Shown piece by piece: positions 5,074-13,838 of a stretch of DNA of 17,068 nt (positions are counted from its first letter, which is position 1; every line of letters begins with the position of its first letter). A program made the translations under genes and the position numbers. Source of the DNA: Cyclostephanos tholiformis (taxonomy: Eukaryota; Bacillariophyta; Thalassiosirophyceae; Thalassiosirales; Thalassiosiraceae); assembly GCA_036939975.1 (NCBI GenBank), contig JALLPB010002589.1, positions 1-17,068 on the forward strand, read 5' to 3'. Below the pieces are notes generated by a model. It saw nothing but the letters and a program-made list of their open reading frames with translations. It did not search any database and was not told where the DNA came from.

Positions 5074-6030
5074 CTAATTCTCACCATCTTCTTTGTCCAT
5101 CATCAACTCGGCAGTAGTGTCCAACTAGTTGCCAAACTCCTCATTAGGGAAGTAGAAATACCCCGTTTTCTTCTACACATTGATGATGACCTCAGAAGAA
5201 ACAGCGTGGTTTGCTGCAATGATCCATGCGGCAACCTTGTCGTGCTTCACCACAGGAATTGGCTTGTTCATGTCTTGGTTATGCAGCCACTCTGTGTAGA
5301 CTTGACACATCTTTGCCTTGAAGGACTTGTTGAATCCTAAGGTTCTGGATGGCAGTGGTGACCGTTCCCTTCATGTGGACAGAGAATGAGTCCAGTAGAA
5401 GAATGGGGATGATGTAATGCAGAACAGTAGCAACATATGAGGCAAGAATGGTATTCACCCAATTGAGCATGGTTGCCTCGTCAAACCATGCCTTGGGTTG
5501 ACAGGCATAGTGGCAGTCATCAGGCAACAGGGGCAGCTCGCGTCGTGCGATCTGCCCGTCACACTTGCCTGTCCAACCAATGAGATGATGAAGAACAAGT
5601 GAGCTGAAAAAAGATACATCAAGATTAGTATATCGTTTTTGAAAGTTACCTTTGAATACAACCATGGGGTGAAGACTCTTCCCCGATGCAGTGACAGACA
5701 TGGCAACAGTGACGCATTTGGTGTCAGCTGCCAATGTATGCATGTTGATGGTGCGCCCTCCCTTCTGGTGAATTGTAGTTTTATAGTTCATTGCATATTA
5801 GACTGGGGTCTGGTCCATGTTTAAAATAAAGTCCAGGTCCCAGGTTCCATCAAGAAGCAAAGGCCTGATAACATCGAGGTAAACAAAGGCCTCCACCTGA
5901 ACTTCAGCAGGATGACACTGTGCAGCATGAGTTACCATGCAATGGATGAGGTTGTCCTCACCATAAAGCGGGAGACAGAAATTTTCTGAGCTTGCTTAGA
6001 CTTCATGTTGAACTCAGGTTTTACTGCCAC
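5074..6030 (-). pseudogene. pogo/Tigger-type DDE transposase relic
   Basis: The minus strand encodes a DDE_1-superfamily transposase in pieces. KSKQAQKISVSRFMVR lies at about 5965-6005. The segment from 5938 runs to FILNMDQTPV, which carries the first catalytic Asp in its NMDQT motif. After an in-frame TAA come a GGRTIN segment, SVTASGKSLHP and VVFKGNF. Further on are CQPKAWFDEATMLNWV and the second catalytic Asp in ILLLDSFSVH. Near 5337 the frame changes and the usual DxGxxxxIPxGxT...QPxDV stretch is missing, joining IQNL to GFNKSFKAKM. The tail EWLHNQDMNKPIP to TGYFYFP carries two TAGs. So there is an internal deletion that removes the third acidic region, plus three stops and at least two frameshifts. 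The N-terminal helix-turn-helix half is absent. The 5' side ends close to the MITE-like repeat at 6042. It is not functional. Confidence 0.8.
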
Positions 6031-6041
6031 TCTTTTAAAAA

Positions 6042-6283
6042 TTGAAACACTACTAGCTAACTAAGGGGTAGCTAAGGGTTAGCTAAAGGTTGACTGAGGG
6101 TTAGGAATTTACTAGGAATCAGTACATGGCAACGAGTGTACACAATCTAAAATCGCTTCCCAAAAAACTCCACTGAAAATGGAATTAGTATATGTTCACG
6201 AGTCTTTCTACGCTATCGAATTCCTAACCCTTAGCTAACCCTTAGCTAACCCTTAGCTAACCCTTAGTTAGGGTCTGTTTCAA
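6042..6283. mobile_element. MITE-like inverted-repeat element
   Basis: About 65-bp arms at 6042-6109 and 6219-6283 are inverted copies. Both start with TTGAAACA at the outside and end with GGGTTAGGAATT at the inside. Each arm is largely a tandem array of an 11-bp unit, CCCTTAGCTAA (right arm) or its complement (left arm, more degenerate). The roughly 110-bp centre is unrelated and non-coding. TTAA lies next to both ends (6035-6038 and 6284-6287), which would fit a piggyBac-type MITE. The left side has three extra A residues between TTAA and the repeat. The right TTAA is also the left target-site copy of piggyBac element A. Confidence 0.6.
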
Positions 6284-6287
6284 TTAA

Positions 6288-6510
6288 TAAGAGCGGTAGT
6301 AGTTTTTTCCCGCCTACCCCTGAGTGTGCTGTTTTTCTTTTGTCAATCGGGCTGTGGTAAGTTTCATGAGTCGACCCAAGTATATAAAAAATCCGAAATT
6401 TTGCGCTAAATCCAATGGTTGCGTTGGGAATTTTTGAAAACAACTGCATTGCTTTGCAATTTAATTCCTCCTATTTTTAATTATCTGACTAATTTACATA
6501 GATTTAGTGT
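6288..6510 (+). repeat. Left terminal inverted repeat of piggyBac-like element A
   Basis: This stretch matches, inverted and with scattered substitutions and small gaps, the stretch near 13620-13838. Clear anchors shared with the right end are CCCCTGAGTGTG (right: CCCCTAAGTGTG), TCGACCCAAGTAT, GAAATTTTGCGCT (right: AAAATTTTGTGCT), AATCCAATG, GCAATTTAATTCCTCCTAT and TGACTAATTTA. The divergence means this element is much older than the nested one. The inner end is approximate. Confidence 0.75.
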
Positions 6511-7265: not shown

Positions 7266-8669
7266 ATGCCCTCTACCTCCTCCTAGCACCAGCACATTGT
7301 CCTTGTTGACAAGGAATGGGCTGCTACCCTCATTGGCCTTCCCGTGCTGGTGCCTAACTCCTGGTGGGAAGGCTACTACAGGAGGGATGATGACACCCTC
7401 AATGCCGACACCATCATTGGTGTTGATTTCAATCAGCCGCACTCAAAGTACTTCCAACTAGAGTGCAGATCTATGCCATGAGATATAATGCTGTCCATGA
7501 ATTTGATGATACAGATCACACAACATACAATGCTTTGAAGTTTCGCCTTCTGCTCAATGCACCTGCAAATCCAGCAAACAAGGATGGAGTGATTGTGCCT
7601 AAAAAAACAAAAACAATCTGGAGACAGGAGGAGGACAAGGATGAGGATGAGGATGAGGATGATGACAATGAAGAGGAGGACAACTTTGTGACGCCATCCA
7701 AGTGCAACAAACCCACAGTACGCAAATGCAAGCACAAAAAAAGAAAAGCGACAATCAACCCTGATTTAGTTTTTGGTGCAGTGGTGGGAGCAAATGAGGT
7801 CAACAAGGTGAACAATGATGAGAATCAAATGACTATGGCAGATCCAAAGAAGTATACGGTGACAAAAATATTGAAATGGATGAGGTGCAATGAGGGAGAG
7901 GGGCGAGTAATCAAACCGGTGCCATGCACTACCCTGTCGGAGCTATTTGACATCAAATTGGAGGATGACAATTTGGACAAGATGCACAATGGATACGGAA
8001 CAATCTGCTTTCATCTCCTCTTTGATTGGCTGCTCCCCAAATTTGGCGAGGGCTTGGATGAAAATGGATTCTACAAGTCTGTTGCTGCATGAATGAGAAC
8101 GTACATGATTCAGATCACAAGAAAACATTCATTCTGGCCACAGTAATTTGATCCTTATGATGGGAAGTTCATCCTGGCAGACAGCGTCACACGCTTCTTT
8201 GGGTGTCAGCTTGCTCATGCAATAAAGGGACTCCAGACTGTTGGAGTACACGAGAAGCACTCGATGCAATCAGGATGGCAAAGGAGAGCATGCCTTGCAG
8301 CGCTTTCAGTGACATGCAAGGTGCATGCACTTTGCGGACAATTGGGCAGACGATGATCTGCAGAGCCTTCATGAGAATGTTGTGACAACCCAGAAGTGGG
8401 CCAACCTCATGGACGTCATCCTTGATGACTTCAAGGGGAAGGGCCACTGCATCACAATGGACTCCATTTACATGGGAGACATGATGGCACAGATTGGATG
8501 TGTTGAGTGGCAGCTCAATATGATTGGCACATCACAATCAAACAGAGTCGGAGTCAACATCAAGGAAATTGTTGACAAGATGAAAATTGTCACCTATGAG
8601 TTGATCATCTGGGAACACAAAAGCAAGAATTTGGTGTTCACCACATGGTCTGACAATGCCATTATGAAG
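7266..8669 (+). pseudogene. piggyBac-like transposase relic A, 5' part
   Basis: This is the N-terminal and central part of a piggyBac-like transposase. The first piece runs 7287-7463 (VLVPNSWWEGYY, then TIIGVDFNQ and YFQLE). The frame then shifts to a 210-codon piece (7463-8092) with YAMRYNAVHEFDD, an Asp/Glu-rich run near residues 56-72 and a Lys/Arg-rich segment after it. In-frame TGA (8090-8092) and TAA (8144-8146) interrupt a continuing match: MRTYMIQITRK, FDPYDGKFILADSVTRFFGC. Two more shifts give CWSTREALDAIRMAKESMP and CMHFADNWADDDLQSLHENV. The match then jumps to GKGHCITMDSIYMGD (about 8438-8480), which holds the equivalent of the second catalytic Asp. The region that should contain the first catalytic Asp is missing, so an internal deletion near 8385 is likely. 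The frame is then cut by the nested transposon after WSDNAIMKT. Confidence 0.75.
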
Positions 8670-8673
8670 ACAT
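8670..8673. repeat. Target-site duplication ACAT, left copy
   Basis: ACAT immediately precedes the left 44-bp inverted repeat and is repeated directly after the right one (12449-12452). The choice of 4 bp is supported because removing the element with one copy restores the interrupted reading frame. A TA duplication with a 43-bp repeat (AGACTG outermost) is also formally possible. Confidence 0.75.
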
Positions 8674-8717
8674 AAGACTGTTCGAATAGAAACAAACGTT
8701 TGACAATTTGGCGGGAA
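8674..8717 (+). repeat. Left 44-bp terminal inverted repeat
   Basis: It begins AAGACTGTTCGAATAG and ends TTGGCGGGAA. It is the exact reverse complement of 12405-12448, and similarity stops abruptly inside it (a T run on the left, CCGATAAACGG on the right in the same orientation). The internal AAACGTTT is palindromic and could be part of a transposase-binding site. Confidence 0.95.
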
Positions 8718-9246
8718 TTTTTTTTCACAACCGGACAGACCTTCTTTTTTTCAGAGCCTCGGCGACGAAAATCGAAAAACAAAAATTCGCCACACGGAAA
8801 CCTGGGGAAACGATGGGCGGCAGCGGCGATTGCCCATTTCTCTGCCTGCAGCATCGCGCACCCCAATCTGATCGATGAAAATTGATCCTCATGCGAAAGG
8901 CTATATCATGCCGTGCTTGGTTTTTTGGGAATTCCATTTGGGGAACGTGCGGGGTCACGACTGTTGCCGTGTGGCGCCTCCAGTTTACTTCTCCCCAAAA
9001 GCAGCAGCGTCGATTGACTCCTCCTGTTGCTCTGATCCACCTCATTTGATCGACCAGAACGCATCCATTGGTCATAAACAATGATATAATGCGCGCGGTT
9101 TGGTCAAAATTGCGTGGGGGAAAGCTCTGTTTTGCACGGAAATTGGGGGGGGGTATTAAGGTTAGTCTATGCAGTATTTATTTTATTTTTATTTATATGT
9201 CATGTTCTCAGCCACCAGCTTTGTGCCGTCCCTTACCACACTACAA
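8718..9246. other. Non-coding left end of the nested transposon
   Basis: This is about 0.5 kb between the inverted repeat and the stop codon of the DUF7869-type gene. It is rich in CpG and contains homopolymer runs of T and G (for example GGGGGGGG near 9147). Short open frames exist but none shows a motif. It would contain the 3' untranslated region and polyadenylation signal of the minus-strand gene, and I cannot point to the signal with confidence. Confidence 0.6.
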
Positions 9247-11744
9247 TCAACAAGGAACAGTTGGGGAGGACGCTGGCGCCATCACACTAGTCAATGCATT
9301 GGCAAGATAGGCCTCTAAACGAGCCATCAGTTCGGCCTTTTTACCGTCTGCCCGGAGCCCATGTTTTTTTAGCTCTTCCTTGATCTCTGGGACCTTCAAC
9401 TTCTTCACCCCAAAAAATGCATCTGCTTTTTGGTCAGCCGCATCCACTTTCTTCTCCTTCAATGCCTTCACCTTTGCCCTATTCTCAGTTCGGAGAACCT
9501 TCTCCTCCTTTACCTTTTGCAATACATCATCGGGGGGTTTTATATAGAACTCGTCTTGATGATATTCTGGAGGTACCACCGGGCGGTACTTGGCATACAA
9601 TTCAACCCGTTTGTATGGATTGATCCCCGGAGGTTCTATCATTGTGAGAAGCTTGGCGGACACAATACGCAATTTATCAATATCATTTGCAAATCCTCTC
9701 TTTGGCCTTACTGCGGTGTGTTGAATTATTTGATGTTCAGCGGGATCGCTCTCTCGAATTGTCATGATCAATTCATCATCGTCACCGTCGCAGGTGAAGA
9801 TGTGATTATTTAGCACCAACCCGGACAAGTTGGTGTAGAAATCTCTGAATGCTGCATTATAATCGAGAAAGTCACTGGCAACTGTCGGATCAACAGTTAT
9901 CTTATCGGAGACATTCAATGCAACAATCAACTCATCCATCGTGAATAAGTTTCTCTTGCGGTACTCGTGTTTCAAAGAATTGAAGAGGCAGTCACAAGCA
10001 TTCTTCGTGTGTCCAACGATGAGGAATACAAAGTTGACTCTTTTAAAGTAATGCATTTCTTTTAGCCACATTGCCAGCTTCAAGACTGTGTTGTTTTTAT
10101 TTTGTCCCGAGCAGTTGTCAAATATTATATTCAACTCTCCGCCGACTTCATCATCTCTAAGAAGTTGCATCTTGCGTAGAGTCTTCACAATCAATGAAGT
10201 AACATTTGTTCCGCCTTTCTTTCCAATTCCCTCATGATATACATGGCAATACATATGATTGTCTATAATACCATTGCCATAGTCGTGGGAGTGATTGACT
10301 ATTCCAAAATTGTTCGCGGTCATGGGAGTGTAGTAGTATGTACAACCTGGCTGCTCGGAATTGTAACATGGGACTTGTATGTTTTGTCCGAAGTCAACAG
10401 TAAGAGTTGTTCTCCTTTTTGAGTACTCAACACCATTTTTTGCATCAGACACAGCAGCTGCCTCCAAACTTTGATATAGAAACCTCTGTGCCCTTGCCAT
10501 ATCAATATGCTTCGAACATTCCAGAATGAGAAGCTCTTTTGCCTCCTCAACTTTGGAACTCGCTGAATCCAGCTTGTCAAGATGTGTGTTGTCTAGCAGC
10601 TGTAGTAGGCCGTCGATATTGTCATTGTCATCGGAATCATTCAATTGTTCCTCATTTCCATTTTCCTTGGTGTGATTGGATAATATCCTGTGTTTGTTTG
10701 CAAAGGTTTAGCAGTAGTAGCATATATCTTTGGCCGGCCGACTCACTTTGAGGGAAGGATAATCCATCTTCCACTTTGTGTAGTATGTGGAAAAGGCAAC
10801 AAAGGAATCCTCGGTTCCGTCTGCACCTTCTACTGTCAAGGTTCCATTTGGGCCAACTGCAACTTTATATCCAAGAGATTCCATGTATCGGTAATAACAA
10901 TTGCGATATCCCATGCTTATTGGCAGATAGATATTCCCATTGGTGTCCTCTCTATTGGTGAGACCACGTTCTCCATCAACCACTGTTGCAATCACTCTAG
11001 TGGCTCTGACCTCTCCGAGCTTATGCAAGTAATCGAAATGATGTCTCAAGTGAATCATGCGTGGATCATCATTTTTGATTGTCACATTACTCTTTTTTCC
11101 TGCTCCCTTATGTCGTGGCATGACTCCAAGTGAAGAGGCGGCTTTGATGGATCTATATCTGGTGTCACCGATACCCATCAATGAACGCATCCCAAGCAAA
11201 CATAGTTGATGCTTTTGTAATGCACGAAGACAATCGATGTCGGCACCATCCGTTGAAATATATGGTAAGCAAAACCACAGATGCTTACCCCCAAGCTTAG
11301 CAGCGATAGCATACTTGGTGTACCACTCCAAAATAATAGAGTCCTGGTCATATTTTTCTTCGTCTCGAACTGAACCAAATACTGTGCAACACACTCCTGA
11401 ACATTCCGGTCTGTAAGAATGTCAAGGCAATCACACATCTTATTCTTACATGAAGGAAGACATTTGAGTCACTCAATGAGAAGCAGTAACAGCTCATCTT
11501 CATTCATATGCTTCCTGCTTTTCCGATTCGGGTATTTGATTGTTGCATCTTCATCGCTCATCTCGGTGAAAGCATGATCATCCCCCCTTCGTTTTTGTGC
11601 TGAGCTTCTGGTGTTCATTGACGGCGAGTCAAGAAAACCATGTTGGATGGGCCTCACCGGCGACAAGAGCTCATCACGAGCCACTTCGTCCAGTCCTATT
11701 GGCCCAATCCCAGTTCGTTTTTGTGCCGAGCTTCTGGTGTTCAT
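9247..11744 (-). pseudogene. DUF7869-type putative transposase with C-terminal SAP domain
   Basis: The gene is about 830 codons, from an ATG at 11744 to a stop at 9247-9249. The N terminus repeats the decapeptide MNTRSSAQKR twice and has basic clusters. A Cys-containing segment (CLPSCKNKMCDCLDIL) follows near 11400-11465, then EWYTKYA, a LMGIGDTRYRSIK motif and HHFDYLHKLGEVRATRV. Next come LPISMGYRNCYYRYMESLGY and DICYYC followed by TFANKH. The second half has CHVYHEGIGKKGGTN (about 10205-10250), FDNCSGQNKNN (10090-10122) and GHTKNACDCLFNSLKHEYRK (about 9960-10020). The conserved acidic residues E, D and D fit an RNase-H-fold transposase, which is inference. A SAP DNA-binding domain (VPEIKEELKKHGLRADGKKA onward, about 9295-9400) ends the protein. 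There are three breaks: TGA at 11469-11471, a one-base loss in the T5 run at 11353-11357, and TAA at 10708-10710. All pieces otherwise join without gaps, so the gene died recently or contains assembly errors. Confidence 0.8.
11600..11744 (-). repeat. Duplicated start region of the DUF7869-type gene
   Basis: The DNA coding for MNTRSSAQKR occurs at 11715-11744 and again, nearly identical, at about 11588-11617, in the same frame. On the plus strand the shared core is CGTTTTTGTGC, one variable base pair, then GAGCTTCTGGTGTTCAT. The second copy offers an alternative initiator ATG 42 codons downstream. Confidence 0.85.
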
Positions 11745-11867
11745 CTACGGTGGCGATAAGAGATGATCTGGGAGAAAAGATAAGCTGCCACTCAGACAAA
11801 TAGGTGAGCATTGGCATGGACTTCCAGTCCTTGGGGCGTCGGTTGTTGTCATCATGATTGTTGTGTC

Positions 11868-11990
11868 AGGGCTTCGTGGTGGTGTTGGTCGGGGCTTCGT
11901 CATTGTGTCAGTTCGGGCTTTGCGGTCGTGTTAGTCGGGGCTTCGCGGTCGTGTTGGTCGGGCTCTGTCATCGTTGCGTGCGCCCGTCGT
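11868..11990. repeat. Degenerate GC-rich tandem repeat
   Basis: Several imperfect copies of a unit like GTCGTGTTGGTCGGGGCTTCG follow each other upstream of the DUF7869-type gene. It may be part of the promoter or leader of that gene, or a subterminal repeat that the transposase binds. The unit boundaries are approximate. Confidence 0.65.
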
Positions 11991-12025
11991 TGCACGTGCC
12001 TTTCGTTGTGTCGCGTGCGTAGTAA

Positions 12026-12073
12026 TTGAACAAGGAGAACACGTCGGACTTGAACAAGGAGAACACGTCGGAC
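12026..12073. repeat. Exact 24-bp tandem duplication
   Basis: Two identical 24-bp units, beginning TTGAACAAGGAG and ending GTCGGAC, lie head to tail, about 330 bp inside the right inverted repeat. They are in the non-coding 5' region of the DUF7869-type gene and are candidates for subterminal binding sites. Confidence 0.95.
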
Positions 12074-12404
12074 TCCGAGGAAAGTGGGACGAACAAGTCC
12101 CAACGAGATGGGGGCTGTCGACCGGTGTGATGGTTTGCTGGTCGGCACTTTTTTGAGAACTTTTTTCGCGGTCCGGCCGCCAAAATAATTGGGGACAAAA
12201 AAACACAAAAAAGAGTTGTGACGGACTTACCCAGCTAAAAATGAGTTTTGGAGATGCGCCAAGAGTAGTTTAGCCTCCCCAGCACGCTGTTTTGCATTCT
12301 ACAATGGAACAGATAGAGAGATGGGGGGAAGACATTTCCAACGATGGGTTGGATGCAATTTCGACCTCATAAAAATTTGTGGCAATTTTTCGTCCGTTTA
12401 TCGG

Positions 12405-12448
12405 TTCCCGCCAAATTGTCAAACGTTTGTTTCTATTCGAACAGTCTT
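12405..12448 (-). repeat. Right 44-bp terminal inverted repeat
   Basis: This is the exact reverse complement of 8674-8717, starting TTCCCGCCAA on the inside and ending ACAGTCTT at the outer end. It is directly followed by the ACAT target-site copy. Confidence 0.95.
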
Positions 12449-12452
12449 ACAT
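12449..12452. repeat. Target-site duplication ACAT, right copy
   Basis: This is the direct repeat of 8670-8673. The sequence after it (TATCAAATTATC) continues the piggyBac-like coding sequence interrupted at 8673. Confidence 0.75.
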
Positions 12453-13228
12453 TATCAAATTATCACAGCGCAACAATTTTTGACGCAGAGGATGGGTTGA
12501 GGCAGAGGAGGACGGGAGATGTGTCAGAAGCCGGTGCCTTGTCCAGAACAGACAAAGACATATTGTGAGACATTCCACCTGATTGACAAGAGGAATGGGG
12601 CAGAGGCAAAGTATGAAATTGCGGGGATTACCTGGACCCAATATTGGGCACCAAAACTTGTGTTCCGCCTCTTCAACATGGCGATGAACAACGCACATGT
12701 CATGTTCAAAGAGTTGGTGTTGAGAGACGGTGGGAAAGCATGTCTATGGGGCAGGCATTGAAGGAGCTGGCACATAGTTTGTGCCAATGAGGACAGTCAA
12801 TGCGATCATTTGCGGTGATGCATCCGGCTCATCTGCATGGCATGAACCAAGTAGATGGGCATGAAAAGGGGACAAAAATTCAGAGCGACAGGAAGTCAGA
12901 GGTGATGCTGTCACCCCCAAAAATTACTGAGGCAATCTCAGCCAAAAGCCAGCTAACAAATCAGAAGAAGAAGCAGATGTGGCGTGTTCACCAGCCAATA
13001 TGCGCATACATTTGCCAAAGGTGCTGCTGGGCGAGATGCCCCAGCATCAAAAAAAGTAAGGCAAAATGAAAGCAAGCATATGATACAAGCTACTTCTGTG
13101 AGGAATGCACTGCAGAGGCAGGGCACAAGACTTATTTGTGCCATTCCATTAAAAATGGTGAAGGGGTAAGTTGCCATGTTGCTTATCACAAACTCAACCA
13201 TAACAAGGTGTTCAAGTCCAGGCGATGA
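12453..13228 (+). pseudogene. piggyBac-like transposase relic A, 3' part
   Basis: This continues the gene cut at 8673. Joined across one ACAT, the frame gives MKT followed by LSNYHSATIFDAEDG, the usual LSxxH segment after the W-x-D motif. The frame then shifts near 12519 to KPVPCPEQTKTYCETFHLID and GITWTQYWAPKLVFRLFNMA, the conserved C-terminal part of piggyBac transposases. A further shift near 12730 gives SMSMGQALKELAHSLCQ, an in-frame TGA (12788-12790), then HPAHLHGMNQVDGHEKG. The end is a Cys/His-rich finger region, read in two frames: RCGVFTSQYAHTFAKGAAGR, then SYFCEECTAEAGHKTYLCHS and VSCHVAYHKLNHNKVFKSRR, stopping at TGA 13226-13228. The CxxC, C-x-H and CH spacing fits the Cys-rich C-terminal domain of the family. 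At least three frameshifts and one stop make it non-functional. Confidence 0.75.
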
Positions 13229-13619: not shown

Positions 13620-13838
13620 CAATGTACAACCTAGGTCTAAATTAGTCAAAAAGTTAAATATAGGAGGAATTAAATTGCATTGCAATGCAATCGTTTTCAA
13701 TCACCCGGATGCAATCATTGGATTCAGCACAAAATTTTGCATTTTTCATATTTATACTTGGGTCGACATATGATATTTACCGCAGCCCTTTATCCAAATG
13801 AAAAACAACACACTTAGGGGTTGGCAACAAAAATCTAA
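13620..13838 (-). repeat. Right terminal inverted repeat of piggyBac-like element A
   Basis: This is the inverted, diverged counterpart of 6288-6510, with shared blocks ATAGGAGGAATTAAATTGC, CATTGGATT, ATACTTGGGTCGA and CACACTTAGGGG. It is followed by TTAA at 13839-13842. A complete comparison would show identity well below that of the nested element's ends. Confidence 0.75.

What the first reader, a model, noticed from the sequence alone, without database searches (positions are those of the whole stretch)
8674..12448. A DUF7869/SAP gene packaged as a DNA transposon with perfect 44-bp ends
Seen directly: 44-bp inverted repeats without a mismatch, a flanking ACAT direct repeat, and one recognisable gene between them whose product has the FDNCSGQNKNN motif, conserved E/D residues and a C-terminal SAP domain. 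DUF7869-type proteins are, as far as I know, mostly annotated as uncharacterised. Finding one alone between intact transposon ends argues that it is the transposase. The combination of a 4-bp target site, 44-bp ends starting AAGACTG and a SAP domain may mark an undescribed superfamily or lineage.
Basis: partly seen in the sequence, partly recalled or inferred. Interest (0 to 1): 0.9.

Follow-up and report, generated by a model that had tools for sequence, protein, structure and literature searches.

The report
Sola2-like DNA transposon with SAP domain
This is a cut-and-paste "jumping gene" from a microbial eukaryote, probably a diatom; its protein carries a domain of unknown function that appears to be the DNA-cutting enzyme, and counterparts sit in bacteria, so it most likely belongs to the known Sola group rather than a new one.

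Summary
In detail: window 8674-12448 has perfect 44-bp inverted repeats, an ACAT duplication and one DUF7869+SAP gene. It is mobile DNA: the end pattern occurs 61 times in the host genome, reversed control 0, and three paralogues of the interrupted host repeat show the empty site with one 4-mer. DUF7869 is very probably the transposase: 11 of 20 DUF7869 contigs carry inward-facing ends, and an Asp triad is invariant in 13 chosen diatom-type and bacterial proteins. Flanks are A-N-N-T; 9 of 16 pairs are identical 4-mers. Published Sola2 elements have 4-bp AWWT duplications (PMC3627910 passages), so a new superfamily is unlikely. Filed as Sola2-like; similarity to a named Sola transposase was not testable. 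The window's gene is broken (stops at 10708-10710 and 11469-11471, a frame change). Bacterial relatives lie in insertion-sequence-like units. Unexplained: 12 of 24 flank pairs differ, only at the inner two positions. No structure was obtained.

The parts
8670..8673 (.). left copy of the 4-bp target duplication, ACAT
   Evidence: paralogous empty sites
8674..8717 (+). left terminal inverted repeat, 44 bp, AAGACTG...TTTGGCGGGAA
12405..12448 (-). right terminal inverted repeat, 44 bp, identical to the left
12449..12452 (.). right copy of the target duplication, ACAT
9247..11744 (-). transposase gene, broken: in-frame stops at 10708-10710 and 11469-11471 and a frame change between 11421 and 11468; the frame 9247-10707 is open
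   Evidence: a relative with one open frame of 845 aa lies in contig C165
9754..10218 (-). stretch matched by Pfam DUF7869 (PF25273), read here as part of the catalytic domain
10393..10395 (-). codon of the first candidate catalytic Asp (D105 of the 486-aa frame, VDFGQN)
   Evidence: D in 111 of 113 rows; invariant in the 13 rows
10117..10119 (-). codon of the second candidate catalytic Asp (D197, FDNCSGQNKNN)
   Evidence: D in 112 of 113 rows; invariant in the 13 rows
9991..9993 (-). codon of the third candidate catalytic Asp (D239, GHTKNACD)
   Evidence: D in 111 of 113 rows, 41 residues between it and D197 in 109 of the 110 rows that have both; invariant in the 13 rows
9304..9408 (-). C-terminal SAP domain (residues 434-468)
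8313..8673 (+). reading frame of the interrupted host repeat, cut where the element begins
12453..12568 (+). continuation of that host frame after the element, up to a stop

Best explanation
A cut-and-paste DNA transposon of the Sola2 type. The DUF7869 protein is its transposase. It binds the 44-bp ends, cuts at AAGACTG using three Asp residues on an RNase-H-like fold, and joins the element to a staggered cut at A-N-N-T sites, leaving a 4-bp duplication. Shown: the ends, the duplication, the empty sites, many related ends, short two-ended derivatives too small to hold the gene, and linkage of DUF7869 to the ends. Inferred: cut-and-paste rather than copying, the catalytic role of the triad, the fold, end binding, and a DNA-binding role for SAP and for the upstream Cys motif. 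The window's own gene is broken, so this copy could now move only with protein from another copy.
For: Perfect 44-bp ends and ACAT. 61 end matches, reversed control 0. Empty sites in C1314 and C1401 (ACAT) and C1232 (AAAT). 9 of 16 paired ends have identical 4-mers; shuffles give 3.2 on average, p 0.0013. A at -4 in 64 of 67 ends, T at -1 in 66 of 67. 11 of 20 DUF7869 contigs have an inward end within 3 kb, reversed control 0. Triad kept in 111, 112 and 111 of 113 rows and in 13 of 13 chosen rows that include bacteria. By eye, hydrophobic stretches around the three Asp fit strand-D, strand-D, strand-helix-D. One bacterial relative (L092) has a weak, below-cut-off match to the transposase family DDE_Tnp_ISAZ013 over the same part (E 0.018, 14.5 of 26.9 bits). 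Bacterial units have similar anatomy. Sola2 has AWWT 4-bp duplications; Sola has a DDD transposase, 4-bp duplications and 2-9 kb.
Against: 7 of 16 diatom pairs and 5 of 8 bacterial pairs differ in the inner two bases. 9 of 20 DUF7869 contigs show no end by my pattern, and one contig (C859) also has an end facing away. No structure model; no meaningful match to a solved structure. In three bacterial genomes searched the gene occurs once each, so no recent spread is seen there. No named Sola transposase was at hand. One insertion (L052, 44-602) carries 4 extra bp.
Confidence: 0.85

Rival explanations
1. DUF7869 transposons, bacterial and eukaryotic, are a superfamily of their own, not Sola.
For: No library searched names it: Pfam calls it unknown function, no NCBIfam model reaches its cut-off, PHROGs gives nothing better than E 0.033 to an unknown family, and no paper of the held library uses the term DUF7869.
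Against: Duplication length, A-W-W-T preference, DDD triad, size and presence in bacteria and eukaryotes coincide with Sola/Sola2 in passages of PMC3627910 and PMC10741241.
Confidence: 0.12
2. The DUF7869 gene is a passenger between ends moved by another transposase.
For: The window's gene is broken, and short elements with these ends have no room for a gene.
Against: DUF7869 lies between both ends in three separate elements (window, C165, C1084), and Pfam names no other gene in the three window frames scanned or in C165's long frame (other frames of C165 and C1084 were not scanned). In three bacterial loci whose frames I listed (L089, L091, L092) it fills most of the unit; in L087 it is split over two frames. 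The triad is conserved.
Confidence: 0.05
3. The inverted repeats belong to a larger unrelated element.
For: The window has an outer inverted pair (6300-6384/13753-13837 and 6434-6496/13638-13700).
Against: The outer pair flanks the interrupted host repeat. The three empty sites break exactly at 8673/12449 with one 4-mer, so the inner element is its own unit.
Confidence: 0.02

Closest known systems
Sola2 group of the Sola superfamily (described for Dictyostelium fasciculatum and Polysphondylium pallidum in PMC3627910; passages seen)
   Same: 4-bp duplications of A-W-W-T type (ATAT, AAAT, ATTT in print; ACAT, ATAT, AAAT, AATT in identical pairs here), terminal inverted repeats, one large transposase; DDD-type enzyme for Sola in general (PMC10741241, passages seen)
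   Different: TIRs of 44 bp rather than 12-21 bp; C-terminal SAP domain in this branch; no Fanzor gene among the frames scanned with Pfam; transposase similarity not tested
Bacterial DUF7869 units found here (Thiomargarita, Desulfocicer, other Desulfobacterales and others)
   Same: same Pfam domain in the four proteins scanned, same three Asp, paired inverted ends with 31-39 of 40 positions identical, A-N-N-T flanks as I placed the ends
   Different: 2.0-2.3 kb in six of eight (L093 3.5 kb, L097 2.7 kb); ends start with GG or GAG rather than AAGACTG; no SAP in the four scanned
piggyBac and Kolobok
   Same: 4-bp duplications; Kolobok ends begin with two purines (PMC9587614, passages seen)
   Different: both are TTAA-specific (PMC9587614); here the target is A-N-N-T

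Membership tests
Sola / Sola2 | 4-bp target site duplication | tested here: met
   empty sites; 9 of 16 pairs identical, 7 of 16 not
Sola / Sola2 | A-W-W-T target preference (Sola2, PMC3627910) | tested here: met
   A at -4 in 64 of 67, T at -1 in 66 of 67; A or T at -3 in 59 of 67 and at -2 in 56 of 67; the window's own ACAT is A-N-N-T, not A-W-W-T
Sola / Sola2 | DDD transposase | tested here: inconclusive
   three Asp conserved, but catalysis and fold untested; no structure
Sola / Sola2 | size 2-9 kb, TIR 11-1124 bp (PMC10741241) | tested here: met
   3,775 bp, 44-bp TIR
Sola / Sola2 | present in bacteria and eukaryotes | tested here: met
   11 bacterial loci encode a relative
Sola / Sola2 | sequence similarity to known Sola transposases | not testable with these tools
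Sola / Sola2 | terminal motif of the group | not tested
   known to me only from recall
piggyBac | TTAA duplication | tested here: not met
   ACAT here; A-N-N-T in general
Kolobok | TTAA duplication | tested here: not met

The most novel reading that the evidence does not exclude
DUF7869 transposases of bacteria and eukaryotes form one superfamily outside Sola, in which the element can carry its old 4-bp A-N-N-T flank into the new site. That would explain flank pairs that agree at A and T but differ inside, and the insertion that has 4 extra bp next to its duplication.
Probability: 0.08. Interest if true: 0.75.

Novelty: new member of a known kind. Interest (0 to 1): 0.42.

Why it matters
It gives a testable function, transposase with an Asp triad, to a Pfam family filed as unknown. 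It points to a large set of bacterial proteins (566 relatives found; among the 120 listed, the readable names are hypothetical protein or, once, chaperonin) as probable insertion-sequence transposases, which would let annotators name them. If the Sola2 link is confirmed, bacterial and eukaryotic forms of one transposon lineage can be compared directly.

Tried and rejected
Independent new superfamily: lowered after the Sola2 target description. An intron between the 10708-11421 and 9247-10707 frames: rejected, the two frames are in phase and separated by one TAA. Viral relatives: 11 stretches matched a pattern, none confirmed. Plasmid and phage records: no match to one bacterial protein, L092. 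Solved structures: nothing meaningful for the transposase or for the host frame. Paper searches for the motif QNKN and for SAP-domain transposases were unhelpful, as were those beyond the papers cited. Donor-flank carriage as the general rule: only one of the seven mismatched diatom pairs (L052, 44-602) shows it; L046 looks like a later point change and L047 has flanks that match two different repeats; the other four had no hit across the join.

The padloc library was not searched.

Full report
WHAT IS THERE. Listed homologues that bear an organism tag are diatoms (Cyclotella, Nitzschia, and a record tagged Psemu). Window 8674-12448 has 44-bp inverted repeats without a mismatch and ACAT on both sides. 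On the minus strand the frame 9247-10707 matches Pfam DUF7869 (2.4e-21) and SAP (5.1e-12). Upstream frames continue the protein, but the gene is broken by an in-frame TAA at 10708-10710, a TGA at 11469-11471 and a frame change between. A copy in contig C165 has one open frame of 845 aa from its first ATG, with DUF7869 and no SAP match.

IT IS A MOBILE ELEMENT. The end pattern AAGACTG-N15-45-TTGGCGGGA occurs 61 times in the genome and 0 times reversed. In the window and 60 fetched stretches (L024-L083) I could pair two ends in 16 cases. For C165 there are two nested right ends; I used the inner one, and the outer one would not match. Nine of 16 pairs carry the same 4-mer on both sides; shuffling the right flanks gives 3.2 on average, p 0.0013. 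Among 67 distinct ends, A is at -4 in 64 and T at -1 in 66; further out the strongest bias is A in 33 of 67 at -7. By the coordinates, ten of the 16 paired elements are 297-303 bp, three are 513-559 bp and three are 3.3-3.8 kb. Joining the window's flanks and searching the genome gave five matches: the two halves of the window itself and three paralogues of the interrupted repeat that run through the site (82, 78 and 86% identical). They have one 4-mer, ACAT (C1314), AAAT (C1232) or ACAT (C1401), where the window has two ACAT. Of seven of the other eight copies with matching 4-mers, three (L044, L045, L065) have hits that span the joined site (these sequences were not read, and for L044 the hits pass the join by 11-16 bases only; L052 1471-1994 was not tested). 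Of the seven with non-matching 4-mers, two (L052 44-602 and, by 10-14 bases, L046) do (read).

DUF7869 IS THE PROBABLE TRANSPOSASE. The protein has 41 matches on 22 contigs, a lower bound. I examined 20 of these contigs (C534 and C179 not fetched): 11 have at least one end that faces the DUF7869 stretch within 3 kb, 9 have none by my pattern, one (C859) also has an end facing away, and the reversed pattern gives 0. Three elements have both ends (window, C165, C1084); C1084's flanks, AGGT and AATT, do not match. I aligned the window frame with 112 of the 120 listed hits of the first homologue search, which found 194. In the 113 rows three Asp are kept in 111, 112 and 111; 41 residues lie between the second and third in 109 of the 110 rows that have both. 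By eye, hydrophobic stretches surround them in the order expected of an RNase-H-like fold. No model could be made, and sequence searches of solved structures give nothing meaningful. The one hint from a library is a below-cut-off match of bacterial relative L092 to DDE_Tnp_ISAZ013 (E 0.018).

BACTERIAL RELATIVES. A scan of prokaryote genomes gave 99 pattern matches and 11 confirmed relatives, E 6e-26 to 1e-10 relative to the candidate stretches, including Desulfocicer vacuolatum DSM 3385 and Thiomargarita. The four proteins that I scanned match DUF7869; none reaches an NCBIfam cut-off. Eight of 11 loci have paired inverted ends around the gene (L087, L088, L089, L091, L092, L093, L095, L097) and three do not (L090, L094, L096). 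I placed the start of the ends at the first G after A-N-N-T with the diatom pattern in mind, so the 16 of 16 A-N-N-T flanks are partly by choice; in L089 the inverted match runs 4 bp further out. Three of eight pairs are identical 4-mers (L087, L092, L095). The three Asp are invariant in 13 of 13 proteins that I chose from both groups. A search with three bacterial proteins found 566 relatives; among the 120 listed, readable names are hypothetical protein or, once, chaperonin. Three genomes searched with the Desulfocicer protein have one match each. In the order of Desulfocicer 5 of 146 genomes have the domain and 0 of 14 control genomes do: patchy, as for a mobile gene, but with no burst of copies.

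WHAT IT IS CLOSEST TO. Passages of PMC3627910 say that Sola2 elements of two social amoebae have AT-rich 4-bp duplications (AWWT; ATAT, AAAT, ATTT). Passages of PMC10741241 say that Sola elements encode a DDD transposase, make 4-bp duplications, are mostly 2-9 kb and occur in bacteria and animals. These fit. What I could not test is similarity to a named Sola transposase: the founding paper is not held, and my memory of its motifs is not evidence. Hence Sola2-like, membership likely but open. piggyBac and Kolobok do not fit because of their TTAA target (PMC9587614, passages). Passages of PMC10294476, PMC7998251 and PMC4455052 name Sola but gave no further feature to test.

WHAT DOES NOT FIT. 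In 7 of 16 diatom pairs and 5 of 8 bacterial pairs the 4-mers differ, and each difference is at the inner two positions (for bacteria the placement of the ends favours this). Later mutation alone should hit all four. Rearrangement or recombination between copies, each end keeping an A-N-N-T of its own, could explain most; L047's two flanks match different repeats. In L052 (44-602) the filled site reads ATTT, an extra AATT, the element, then ATTT, while the empty paralogues read ATTT (C290) and ACTT (C588), as if the element had brought an old flank along. L046 fits a simple ATAT duplication with a later change on the right. I leave this as a lead.

VERDICT. Real and well supported as a transposon; the transposase assignment is strong but lacks a structure; a new superfamily is unlikely. 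No paper in the held library mentions DUF7869, so the assignment may be new in print, within the limits of that library.

Noticed in passing
window 6300-6496 and 13638-13837: Outer inverted repeats (85 nt at 79% and 63 nt at 87%) enclose the interrupted host repeat, so the element appears nested in an older transposon. Its frame looked piggyBac-like to me by eye only; Pfam gave no match over cut-off for 8313-8675 or 7427-8092.
   Followed up: partly
window 6049-6271: Runs of an 11-bp unit CTAACCCTTAG facing an inverted partner, resembling telomere-type repeats.
   Followed up: no
window 5279-5797, minus strand: A frame with a Pfam DDE_1 endonuclease match (2.3e-6), another transposase remnant.
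   Followed up: no
L052 44-602 (contig C64): An insertion with duplication ATTT and 4 extra bp AATT beside its left end, judged against two empty paralogues.
   Followed up: partly
L089 2515-3151: The Desulfocicer DUF7869 unit begins inside what looks by eye like an IS3-type transposase frame; the flank 4-mers AAAT/ATTT do not match.
   Followed up: no
P0276: A bacterial DUF7869 protein is named chaperonin in public databases, apparently a misannotation.
   Followed up: no
P0156: A DUF7869 homologue also lists Pfam PF21743, so other extra domains besides SAP occur.
   Followed up: no
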